Assembly (NCBI GenBank): GCA_903813345.2
Contig: CAIIXF020000006.1
Coordinates: 7,736,989 to 7,800,988 of the forward strand
DNA: 64,000 nt
From: Owenia fusiformis
Lineage: Eukaryota; Annelida; Polychaeta; Sabellida; Oweniidae
Reading direction: 5' to 3'
Shown: positions 24,712 to 30,700 of the stretch, one piece after another
Layout: every line of letters begins with the position of its first letter
Numbering within the stretch: the stretch's first letter is position 1
Notes under the pieces: model-generated
What the model saw: only the letters and a program-made list of their open reading frames with translations
Told to the model about the DNA's origin: nothing
The model's database searches: none
Translations under genes and position numbers: made by a program

Positions 24712-27700
24712 TCAAACAGTTGACAGTAAAAGACTGAAGACCATTTCCAGAAATTGTTCATAGTTGATTGTGACAACCCCTCTTTGCTGAGTATCATGTT
24801 TCCTAAATGCATCTGTTAATGTCTGAAATAAAAAATGAAGATGACAGTAAAAATTTGAAGACTTCTTAAAATGTACAACACACAAACTATCAGTCTCAAA
24901 ATTTTGAAACTTTGAAATGTCCTTGAAAATATTTTTCATGTGTATGTTAATACCTATATACATATTATCTCACATAAACTTATCTAGTTTTATGAAAACC
25001 TCAAAGATAAATGAATGAATGCTGTAAAGTTAGTTTTCAAAATGAAATGTACATGCTAAACCCATTCCTCATTGAAACATTTCAACATCAACAATGGGAC
25101 TGTTTCCTTTATTTCAACTGTGCCATCATGCAAATACTTGAACACAGATACAGTAAAACTAATATGTGGTTCAGGAAACTGGACATGTAAGACATGGCTG
25201 CAATGCTATATGCAATGTTGATGTGAAAAAGTCAGTCGGTCCTACAGCTCGTGGCAGAACCAAGAAAATGAAGGGCCCTGTGATCAATCACCACTTGGGT
25301 CCCGAATTGAGTGGACTGACTTTTTCACATCAGCCCTTAGCACAAGATTTCATTGTTTTTCATTAACCAATTTGATCTTAATCTTACCTGGAGAGATACA
25401 CAACACTGGACGAAATCATCAAATGCAATTGTGCCCCTTCCTTGTCTGTCAAACTTACGTACCAACATTTGGCAGAAGTTTGGTGACATCCTATAACCTG
25501 TAATAATAACACACAGTGATAAATACCACACTTTTTGAAAGATTCAAAATGGCCGACAAGTAATTCACCCAGCACGACTAGGGACAGTAATCGGAGCATA
25601 TACCTATTACAGCATTTCTAAGATACCAATTTGATTTATACAAAACTGCATTATTTTCAAACATTAGTGAATAAAGTGAAAATATGAGATACAGTACATG
25701 GGGAATAAATTGAATAGTGTGGATGCTGATGGGAAACAACTTCAGTTGATTGACCTTACAGATGAATATGATTTCCAGAAATGTTGGAGTATTTTAGAAC
25801 CAAACAGAGGTTAAGCCACTACAGTTGAATTCTTACCAAAGCTTGTAAGGGCAACATTAAGCTCTTGGTTGTCAATAGATCCAGAATTGTCCCTGTCATG
25901 ACTCCTAAATGTAGTCTGCCAATCCGTCACATATTTCCAGAGTTGTTGGAACTCCTGGAAGTTTATAGTTCCACTCCTGTCCCTGTCAAACATTCCTATA
26001 AGAAAAGATCAACATTTTTCATGATGTTTCATAAAGTTGTCATTTCAGTTACTTATTTCATAACATGTCATTTAAGATCAAATATGAATGAGGCATTAGT
26101 ATGCTGTTCGTTTGGTATGATAGAAGCATAGGCATAGCCAGGGATGCGATGGTGCGATCCTACCCCCCCCCCTCCGTAACCAATAACAATTTATTTGAAG
26201 CTTCTAGCTAAATTTTGAAGGAAGTTGCATCAATTTTTGTGAAATTCAATAAATCTTCAATTTTTGGGTTTCTTATGCCACAATTGCACCTCCGACTGAA
26301 AATCTGATTTTTTGGCGATATGAAAGCTCACTGAAAGCTGGCTACGCCCCTGAGAAGGTATCTTGTGCTGGAGAGCAAGGGTACTTGATGGAAAATAGTT
26401 CATAACATAGCTCACCTATCATCATCCTCACAGTCTCTGGGTTGAATGGGGTCCATGTTCCTGAAATAATTCATTCATGAATCATCAATAAATCATACAT
26501 TTCCTGATATCATTTTTAAAATAACTGTTTTTTATATATTCCCCTGCAACTCCAAAATTGCTGAATACCAAAAAACAAGTTAAAGTTAACAATACCACTG
26601 AATTTTAATGTCAGTTTCCCATTTTCAGAATTTTCTATTTAATTACCATTAAATTCTCATTTACCATAAATCACACTCATCAGTACATGACAATGATTAT
26701 ATTGTGAAACATAGATGGCGAGTAAAGGGTTGTGATAACATATTCTGTGTCTAGCTGTTTCTGATAGAATACTATATGGCACTGGAATATTCCAGTGATA
26801 TATTGATTAACTGTATTTGCAGTAACATGTACATTACATTAGAAACTAGATGTATTAGCAGCAAGATATAAACTACTTAAATAAAGCGAAACTCAGCTTA
26901 AGAAACTAATACAAGGCATGAACATGCAAAATGCCACCACCTGCTATTTGTTACATACTAGTATGCCATTGGTTACAGATGCCAACCACCAAGTGCCAAA
27001 CACAAACTGCAGTCCATAAAAAAGTTGGGAGACTATAACAATGTCACCACCACCAATATATCACCACTTGTTATGGTGACATAAAAACTATCTAAATTTT
27101 GTAAAGGAAAACCAAGACCACCATATTCTATAGACCACCATATATGTCTTACCATTAGAGAGTGCCTGTTGTAACTCAGTTCCACTAATGCATCCACTTC
27201 TATCTTTATCTATCCTGGTTGAGGAGAAAACATACACTATAGTAGCTATGTGTCATCTTATCTGTTATCTATCTCACATACCCCATACATGTTGGGGAAT
27301 GTTGCTATTATAATGTGCTGGTCATCATTTTATATCATAACTCTTAACAGACTGAGGATGGGACATCTCACCAAATTAAACTTTCATTGTTGGCTGCTAA
27401 TGGTGTAACTTCTCTCCCGAAATGTTTTTCAAAATGTAGCCTTGCATCAGGTATCTGACCCCCCCCCCCTTTCTACTTTACCCATATGTTGGACATACAG
27501 GGGGAGTCACAAGCCATGAAGTGAAATGATTCAGTCTGTGGAGAGTTAAGGAAGAATGATACCAGCAGCATGGTGGTCATCGTTTTCTTTCACATAAATA
27601 CAGTGCACAAAGAAGGCAGGATTTAAATGGGTCAGAAGCTATGTGATATACATATGTAGGCCTAATCATAAAAAAAATTGTGTGATGGTTACACCCTTGG

Positions 27701-30700
27701 TATAAGCAGTTACCTATAACCAGTGTCACAGCATGACTGTGGAGGGGTAAAGGTTATTTTTCTAATTCAAATCTATTAATTATCATTGACTTTTTCATGT
27801 CGAATTTCAAATTTGAAATCTATGATGCCTTCAGCTTGGAGTGTTTTTCCCATCCACCCAGTCTATTATCAGTAGCTGTATCTACCAAGGGTGGTTGAAG
27901 AGATACCAAAATGTATGGGATAAATTAGTTTTGATTCAAAGGAAAACCAATGAAAACATCTTATGTAAATGAAATGAAATTATGAAGAAAAGCCAGACCA
28001 CCATGCATAAGAGACTGGTTAGAAAGGAGTAAGAAAGGCTAAGAAGTGGGATTACATTTTCTTATCATGTTGCTTGTTTGCTGCAATTTGCTGTATTTGT
28101 TATAAATACTGAAGTTAAGTTAAAGGGAAAATATTCATTTGCATCTTGAAATGGTGGGTTTAGTATTGGGATAATAATGGGTGTTGTAACGGAACATTTT
28201 CACAAGATTTATATTGATAATTTTTGTTTATCTAGATTATGATTTGATTTTGTACCTATATCAATTACAGTCCTCTTAATTCATTTGAATGACGTACAAT
28301 GAAAGGTTGAAAGGTTTCATGAAAGGTTGGGTCTTTCAGTATTTCATTTCTATACTACAATCACTGCAACTAAACAGCAAACGAGCAATATTATAAGCAA
28401 TCAACAAGATTTCATGCTTCGATCACATCATTCCAACTGGCATCAACATCAGAGAGCTGTTATTCTGCAAATAATTACCACATTAGTGGATTAGTGATCT
28501 AAGTGGTTTTCATTGTGAACCTAAAAGCAAATGTCCCTTACAAATTTTATCATGGTGTTTAGGTTCTTATAAAAACAATAATTTGAACAACTTCTTGTGA
28601 ATGGTCTTTAAGATAATCAAGTTGATAATTTATACCATCATTCAACACTTTATTAATGTGGAAGTGATTGTTTTTTTCTTTTGATGATCATGATAAATTT
28701 TGTATGAGAAATCTGGGACATACTGTAACCCAGATTTAATTTCAGTGATCCTATATTTTGTTTTTTTGATTGAAATTTTGAATTTTGACACTAACTGTAT
28801 TTTACCAAATGTTGCAGAAAGCTTCCAAAAAGCAATATTTGCATTCAAAACAAGGTAATAAAAAGCACAAAACATAAACGCACTTAAATTATACCAGTGT
28901 TACAGTGCTTCGGCACAGTATGTAAATAATCCCTGGGGAAATATAAAGCAACACAATTAATCATTTGCAACATATCATCATTTTATAACTCACCATTTGA
29001 TAACGCCTGTCCCAACTCTATAGCAGATATTTGATTACTTCTATCTTTGTCAACTCTAAAACATTTTCAAAAAATTTTTTTGTTCATTTTCATGGATAAT
29101 ACTCAAAATGTGGAAATATACGTGAAGGTTCTCTTCAAGGGAGGTTGCAGGAACTTCTATCTATTTCTTCCTCTCTGCAAAATTCACTGGTGGATTATTT
29201 AAAGAGAGTAGAAGGTAGAGATGAGTTGAGAGTATGTTTGGAAAAAGTTTTTGTATTGTCTTTTACAAAATGTTGTGCTCTTCATCGTTCCATGCCATGT
29301 CTAAAAACTTCAATACTTCTGACTTTTTCAGGATATTCATTCTATTTTTAAGGTAATATATGCCAATAGTTTTGAAAAAGGGATGTTCACTTTTTTCTAC
29401 TTTTTTATTTTATTGAGTACCCTATCTAAATTCTTTTTTCAGAAAATAAAACCAGGATTGTAAAGAGAACAACAATGAAATAATTTTGTAAAGACTGCTT
29501 CTAACATTTTACACTCTGACTCTTCTCTCCATTCTAATTTCTTAAATACAGGGTAGTCAAAAAATGGAAACCATGCATTTTTCTCATATCTTTGTTGTTT
29601 TAAGAGATTACCCCCTGATATTTCACACATCTGTACATCTCAATTTCCTACAACCCTACCATGTTTCATGACAATCAGATTGATAGTCACAACTTTACAT
29701 CACTTTGAACAACATGCTTCAGGTTTGACCATCATCGCGCTGTAAGCAAACCTGCACAGTTGTCAATGATCCAAATGCATTTCTCAGCAGGTATGGCCTG
29801 AATAATACAGATGATCTCACTTTTGAGGTCTGAAATTGTCCTGAGTTACTTCCTGCGAAAGCTATTTGGATTTTGATATAATAGCTTTCCCACGGAGCAT
29901 TTGGACAGCTCAATGATCGTGACCTTTGAAATCGAATTAAGTCGATCCGCGGCTTACTTTTGGTCTCTAACTGTCTCTTACATCAGTATCATCAATCAAT
30001 GTAAGTATTGGAGCGCTGGAGTACTTCTTTTTCGATCAAGACTTGTAATTGTTAGTCGAGTGAATCGTTTTACTGCCAAATTCCAATATGGCGGTTTCTG
30101 CTCGGACATTTTCGTAAATCTCCGGAGGTTGTCCGAACCTAACTAATTCTCAAAATTCATTTCGTTCGTTGCGTATCTCGCACCTAGCAAACCGCCATAT
30201 TGGAAATAGGTCTGTAAAACTTTAACTCGATGAACAATTTACAAGTCTTGATCGAAAAAGAAGTACTCCAGCGCTCCAATACTTACACGGATTGATGATA
30301 CTGATGTAAGACACAGTTAGAGACCAAAAGTAAGCCGCGGATCGACTTAATTCAATTTCAAAGGTCACTATTGATCAGCTGTTCACTTCTCCGTTTGAGA
30401 GCCATAAGTTTCAAAATCTAACATGGCTCTCGAAGTGAGTAAGTCCTGAGGTCATTCTCATACACTCTATCTCTGCCATATCCCCACAGGTAGGCACATT
30501 TTGGACAAAGTGTGCTGGTTTCCCTACAGCGCATTAGTGGCCACTGGGTATGTTCTTTAAAGTGCTGTAACATTGCTGTAACATTGTGACTATCAATCAG
30601 ATGGTAATGGAATAAGGTAGGCTGTTAGGAAATAGAATGATGTACAAATGTGTAAAATATCAGGGAGTTATTTGTTAGACTGACAAAGATATGAGGAAAA

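What the first reader, a model, noticed from the sequence alone, without database searches (positions are those of the whole stretch)
27153..29055. Mutually exclusive exons switch EF-hand 1 of PDCD6/ALG-2
Two 62-nt exons, 1.8 kb apart, code for alternative versions of the same EF-hand: [12 protein letters not shown] and [12 protein letters not shown]. Both enter in phase 2 and leave in phase 1, so using both or neither breaks the frame; exactly one must be chosen. One replaces loop Gly6 with Asn and changes flanking residues, so the isoforms should differ in calcium response. I do not know of such a switch in the vertebrate gene.
Basis: partly seen in the sequence, partly recalled or inferred. 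Interest (0 to 1): 0.82.

Follow-up and report, generated by a model that had tools for sequence, protein, structure and literature searches.

The report
Two alternative exons for one calcium-loop
An animal gene for the calcium sensor ALG-2 (PDCD6) carries two versions of the exon that encodes its first calcium-binding loop, arranged so that a working protein needs exactly one of them, which suggests the animal can choose between two forms of this sensor; use of both exons in RNA has not been shown.

Summary
The minus strand holds a complete, single-copy PDCD6/ALG-2 gene with two 62-nt versions of the EF1 exon: 2A (29055-28994, [12 protein letters not shown]) and 2B (27214-27153, [12 protein letters not shown]), in the same splice phases. 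Either one gives an open 175-aa protein; neither or both brings an early stop. Silent divergence looks saturated, yet 14 of 20 residues are kept, reached in 0 of 20,000 neutral simulations in each direction. The flanks show no similarity above shuffles. So the duplication is old and both copies were held as coding sequence. 2A has a strong donor but weak acceptor, 2B is strong at both: I expect 2B by default, 2A when activated. Both keep the calcium-ligand side chains; 2A keeps every Sec31A-pocket residue of this exon, 2B all but one (Val to Ile). They differ at loop positions 6, 7, 10, 11 and two flanking residues, which points to tuning, not loss, of EF1. No transcripts or related animals could be examined. 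EF-hand switching by paired exons is known in alpha-actinin; my open-library searches showed none for PDCD6.

The parts
32349..32389 (-). PDCD6 exon 1 (coding part), [13 protein letters not shown] plus two bases of Arg
   Evidence: donor GTAAAG; aligns with the FLW..FQR start of EF1 in PDCD6
28994..29055 (-). alternative exon 2A, EF1 loop [12 protein letters not shown], 62 nt
   Evidence: donor GTGAGT ranks 2 of 433 GT sites, acceptor ranks 147 of 431 AG sites in the gene
27153..27214 (-). alternative exon 2B, EF1 loop [12 protein letters not shown], 62 nt
   Evidence: donor ranks 4 of 433, acceptor 3 of 431
27215..28993 (-). intron between the two alternative exons, 1,779 nt
   Evidence: too long for simple steric blocking (inference)
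26416..26460 (-). PDCD6 exon 3 (45 nt), common acceptor for 2A and 2B
   Evidence: acceptor ranks 84 of 431
25837..25995 (-). PDCD6 exon 4, EF2-EF3
25388..25497 (-). PDCD6 exon 5, EF4
24712..24822 (-). PDCD6 exon 6, EF5 and stop

Best explanation
This is an old tandem duplication of the EF1 exon of a single-copy PDCD6/ALG-2 gene, used as a pair of mutually exclusive exons. Exclusivity is enforced at least by frame: the exon length is 3n+2, so RNA with both or neither meets an early stop and would be expected to decay (stops shown; decay inferred). Exon 2B, with two strong splice sites and the more human-like EF1, is probably the default. Exon 2A, with a strong donor but a weak acceptor, probably needs an activating factor and may be used in certain cells or stages (inferred). 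Both isoforms keep the EF1 side-chain ligands and, but for Val35 to Ile in 2B, the residues of the Sec31A-binding pocket 3 that this exon encodes. The switch therefore most likely tunes calcium affinity, kinetics or Mg/Ca selectivity at EF1, and hence the calcium threshold for target binding, rather than turning EF1 off (inferred).
For: Six coding positions and two open 175-aa isoforms; stops in the two wrong combinations. The nine best PDB sequences are PDCD6, E down to 5.8e-75 (2B) and 4.9e-72 (2A); sorcin is next at 7e-42 and 1.2e-41. Single copy: pieces at 82-95% identity lie only in the window gene; two other penta-EF genes match at 36-69% by piece. No second allele or duplicated contig of the region among the 40 scored matches. 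dN 0.35 with dS returned as -1, read as saturated (NG86; LWL85 and YN00 failed); 14 of 20 residues kept against a neutral mean of 6.6, reached in 0 of 20,000 runs in each of two directions. Flanks: local scores of 300-nt flanks were reached by 145 of 200 and 137 of 200 shuffles. Donors rank 2 and 4 of 433 GT sites. Pocket-3 residues V35, L48, A51, L52, S53, G55 and the ligand E47 are from PMC4346919 passages: 2A keeps all of them, 2B all but V35, which is Ile.
Against: No RNA evidence at all. The 2A acceptor is weak (147 of 431 AG sites), which would also fit a dying exon; the neutral test shows long constraint but cannot exclude a recent loss. 2A differs from human EF1 at 5 of 20 residues, 2B at 3 of 20, and 2A lacks the usual Gly6. 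The splice-site matrices were recalled, approximate and not made for this species. No RNA pairing that could steer the choice stood out against a matched control. Conservation in other animals could not be tested: scans of viral and prokaryotic collections gave no relative, as expected for an animal gene.
Confidence: 0.8

Rival explanations
1. Exon 2A is a relic: an old duplicate that was used in the past and is now rarely or never spliced, so the gene makes only isoform 2B.
For: Weak 2A acceptor with a broken pyrimidine tract. 2A differs from human EF1 at 5 of 20 residues against 3 of 20 for 2B, and has lost the usual Gly6.
Against: Open frame, exact phases, donor ranking 2 of 433, silent divergence that looks saturated with 14 of 20 residues held, side-chain ligands and this exon's pocket residues intact. 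Exon 3, which must be used, also has a weak acceptor (84 of 431).
Confidence: 0.1
2. The pair is mainly an expression valve: a share of RNA takes both or neither exon and is destroyed, and the protein difference has little effect.
For: Both wrong combinations give an early stop: after 31 aa (neither) and at codon 36 (both).
Against: Stops follow from keeping any second 62-nt exon. If only the stop mattered, the amino acids of 2A would not have been held.
Confidence: 0.06
3. Exon 2A belongs to an alternative transcript with its own first exon inside intron 1, so that the choice is made by promoter and not by splicing competition.
For: The stretch between exon 1 and 2A is long (3,293 nt) and 2A is the nearest exon to it.
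Against: A motif search of all six frames of the window found one exon-1-like start within the gene, at 32371; a start without this motif would be missed.
Confidence: 0.04

Closest known systems
ACTN1/ACTN4 alpha-actinin mutually exclusive EF-hand exons (Waites et al. 1992, seen only as cited in passages of PMC9177970 and PMC9741552)
   Same: A tandem duplicated exon, one of which is chosen, changes an EF-hand and its calcium response.
   Different: There only one version keeps the ability to bind calcium; here both keep the side-chain ligands. Different protein family, so independent origin (inference).
P/Q-type calcium channel and OGDH 4a/4b paired exons (PMC9177970, passages and section 17)
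   Same: Mutually exclusive duplicated exons in genes of calcium response.
   Different: OGDH 4b carries a DADLD site without Gly6 or an acidic residue 12; introns between such exons are described as often short, with distant branch points, while here the intron is 1,779 nt.
Mammalian ALG-2 delta-GF122 isoform (PMC5037681, passages)
   Same: Alternative splicing of the same gene changes calcium affinity and target choice.
   Different: It arises from an upstream donor, drops two residues and shortens helix 5; here a whole EF1 exon is exchanged. At the matching place this gene has no GT: the last six bases of exon 4 read GCTTTG (that the deletion corresponds to these six bases is inferred).
NALCN duplicated exons with alternative selectivity (PMC3557258, title and start of abstract; PMC9741552, passage)
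   Same: Tandem duplicated exons in invertebrates that change ion handling.
   Different: Ion channel pore, not an EF-hand.

Membership tests
PDCD6/ALG-2 | Penta-EF-hand protein with closest match to ALG-2 rather than sorcin, grancalcin or calpain | tested here: met
   Best nine PDB sequences are PDCD6, 244.9-254.1 bits with 2B and 235.1-244.4 bits with 2A; the next, sorcin, scores 146.4 and 145.4 bits. Peflin was not among the chains listed.
PDCD6/ALG-2 | EF1 and EF3 with canonical calcium loops | tested here: met
   EF1 [12 protein letters not shown] or [12 protein letters not shown] (Asn for Gly at position 6 in 2A); EF3 [12 protein letters not shown]
Mutually exclusive exon pair | Neighbouring homologous exons of equal length and phase | tested here: met
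   62 nt each, phase 2 in and 1 out, 14 of 20 residues identical
Mutually exclusive exon pair | Neither and both destroy the reading frame | tested here: met
   early stops in both combinations
Mutually exclusive exon pair | Both exons found in separate mature transcripts | not testable with these tools
   no RNA data for this genome
Mutually exclusive exon pair | Evolutionary retention in related species | not testable with these tools
   no other animal genomes held; constraint tested only within the pair
Mutually exclusive exons controlled by docking/selector RNA pairing | Competing intron pairings stronger than chance | tested here: inconclusive
   Against a small mononucleotide control the best cross-intron duplexes beat every shuffle by 2.0 to 7.3 kcal/mol; against a matched dinucleotide control they were reached by 1 of 8, 1 of 8 and 2 of 8 shuffles. 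No support, low power.

The most novel reading that the evidence does not exclude
An ancient, regulated EF1 switch in ALG-2, probably shared by related phyla, gives one gene two sensors with the same targets but different calcium thresholds or metal selectivity. Because EF1 helps to build pocket 3 and EF3 drives the arginine switch for ALIX, the switch could retune COPII/Sec31A control separately from ESCRT/ALIX recruitment.
Probability: 0.3. Interest if true: 0.65.

Novelty: new member of a known kind. Interest (0 to 1): 0.5.

Why it matters
In mammalian ALG-2, breaking EF1 (E47A) abolishes binding to Sec31A and ALIX in pulldowns, and EF1 residues form part of the Sec31A pocket (PMC4346919, passages). 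A natural pair of EF1 versions that differ only at non-ligand positions would be a ready-made experiment on how loop position 6 and its neighbours set calcium response while target residues stay nearly the same. It would also add a penta-EF-hand protein to the calcium sensors tuned by paired exons.

Tried and rejected
Search for a third EF1 copy in the window: none. Gene duplicate or haplotig as the source of a false pair: none found (one search scored 40 of 1141 first-look candidates). Similar paired exons in two other penta-EF genes of this genome (L001, 9,901 bases; L002, 9,001 bases): one EF1-type match in each fetched stretch, and in both the frame runs through the place of the PDCD6 exon 2/exon 3 junction without an intron. 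Exon 2A as a copy from one of these paralogs: 2A is about as similar to their EF1 loops (14 and 13 of 20 residues) as to 2B (14 of 20), so 20 residues do not settle ancestry, but the 62-nt boundaries of 2A are those of PDCD6 exon 2. Docking/selector pairing: the first, smaller mononucleotide control favoured pairing, the matched dinucleotide control did not. Relatives in viral and prokaryotic collections: 1 and 17 stretches matched a pattern, none encoded a relative; the peptide patterns lay outside the two exons. Naming the species by assembly size or chromosome number: no result (one search gave one unrelated paper; one search listed 10 of 273, none useful). Literature on Gly to Asn at EF-hand position 6: two listings, not read.

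Full report
What is there. The minus strand between 32389 and 24712 holds a complete PDCD6/ALG-2 coding sequence: exon 1 32389-32349, two alternative second exons 29055-28994 (2A) and 27214-27153 (2B), exon 3 26460-26416, exon 4 25995-25837, exon 5 25497-25388 and exon 6 24822-24712. The six donors are GT and the six acceptors AG. Joined with either second exon the gene gives an open protein of 175 aa. The best nine PDB sequences for both isoforms are PDCD6; sorcin follows about 90-100 bits lower. Five EF-hand families match both isoforms above their cut-offs, a sixth stays below.

Is the pair more than chance? An ungapped scan of all six frames of the window with both EF1 sequences scores 101 and 95 for the two exons, 40 and 39 for other EF-hands of the same gene, and 27 or less elsewhere. 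The exons agree at 38 of 62 bases, and at 14, 14 and 9 of 20 first, second and third codon positions. dN is 0.35 and dS came back as -1, which I read as saturated (NG86; LWL85 and YN00 failed). Neutral change to the same base identity kept 14 or more of 20 residues in 0 of 20,000 runs from 2B and 0 of 20,000 from 2A, with means of 6.6. So both copies were under coding constraint for most of their separate history. A recent loss of 2A cannot be excluded by this test. Flanks show no similarity above shuffles, which also makes the duplication old. Over this short stretch 2A and 2B differ about as much from each other (37 of 60 bases alike) as from the EF1 of two other penta-EF genes of this genome (32 to 40 of 60).

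Why one and only one. The exon adds 62 bases. With neither exon the frame stops after 31 aa; with both, a stop follows the Gly codon at the junction, at codon 36. A duplicate of an exon of this length can be kept only if one copy is left out of each message. I found no second PDCD6 gene and no other copy of this 2.5-kb region; the other 39 of the 40 matches listed are a dispersed repeat within its first 205 bases.

How the choice may be made. With approximate, recalled splice matrices, 2A has a donor that ranks 2 of 433 GT sites but an acceptor that ranks 147 of 431 AG sites; 2B ranks 4 and 3. Exon 3, which must be used, has an acceptor ranking 84 of 431. I infer 2B as default and 2A as activated. 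The 1,779-nt intron is too long for steric blocking (inference). Cross-intron RNA duplexes beat all of a small mononucleotide control, but against dinucleotide shuffles of the same size they were reached by 1 of 8 (intron 1 with the middle intron), 1 of 8 (intron 1 with the last) and 2 of 8 (middle with last). So no docking/selector pairing is supported.

What changes in the protein. Relative to the PDCD6 EF1, in human numbering, 2A differs at five positions: G41N, V42Q, D45A, T46I, Q49G; 2B at three: V35I, V42C, D45G (for the counts). Side chains at loop positions 1, 3, 5, 9 and 12 and Ile at position 8 are unchanged in both (that these are the key positions is recalled, and agrees with the conservation order in PMC9177970). 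PMC4346919 (passages) lists V35, L48, A51, L52, S53 and G55 among the pocket-3 residues that bind Sec31A, and reports that E47A in EF1 abolishes binding to Sec31A and ALIX. 2A keeps all of these; 2B keeps all but V35, which is Ile. The switch thus largely spares ligands and target contacts and changes the loop around them. Asn for Gly6 is conservative in backbone terms (recalled: both tolerate the left-handed turn). I therefore expect tuned affinity or selectivity. This step is inference.

Comparison with what is known. Paired exons that switch an EF-hand are known in alpha-actinins, where one version loses calcium binding, and paired exons are described in P/Q-type channels and OGDH (PMC9177970, passages and section 17; PMC9741552, passages). 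EF-hand alternative splicing in alpha-actinins is stated to be limited to chordates. For ALG-2 the isoform described in mouse and human lacks Gly121-Phe122 through an upstream donor (PMC5037681, passages). Searches for PDCD6, ALG-2 or penta-EF-hand with mutually exclusive exons or isoforms listed no paper whose title or abstract start reports an EF1 exon pair. The single hit concerns a fusion with a PDCD6IP pseudogene; the ALG-2 mention in PMC9177970 is a reference to two ALG-2 forms with different calcium affinity; the Drosophila paper concerns peflin and says nothing of exon pairs in its passages; PDCD6 does not occur in the main text of PMC9177970 or PMC9741552. I saw passages of six papers and only listings of the rest. 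The library is open-licence only, and annotated isoforms in sequence databases were not searchable. So 'not found' is all I can say.

Limits. The genome has 498 Mb in 525 contigs; the 127 EF-hand matches fall on contigs C1 to C12 but for two on C246. An oweniid annelid would fit by size and chromosome number, but this is recall and was not tested. No transcripts and no other animal genomes were available.

Noticed in passing
29919-30097 and 30189-30371 (intron 1): Inverted repeat with arms of about 180 bp, 92% alike, about 0.9 kb upstream of exon 2A; looks like a miniature palindromic transposon and would form a strong RNA hairpin.
   Followed up: partly
26901-27104: Copy of a dispersed repeat that begins about 50 to 100 nt downstream of the exon 2B donor; 39 other genomic matches listed, 71-96% identity, 40 of 1141 first-look candidates having been scored.
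   Followed up: no
10682-13634 (+): Retrotransposon-like reading frames with endonuclease and reverse transcriptase domains.
   Followed up: no
40894-41241 (-): Adenylate kinase-like stretch (PF00406, E 3.6e-21).
   Followed up: no
25837-25842 (end of exon 4): Where the mammalian delta-GF122 isoform would need an upstream donor there is no GT: the last six exon bases read GCTTTG.
   Followed up: partly
L001 1500-5000 and L002 2100-4100: Two further penta-EF genes, peflin-like by eye (recalled), with EF1 stretches VDADRSGKITAIE and VDQDRSGRITATE; the C9 gene shares the AIE loop end with exon 2A.
   Followed up: partly
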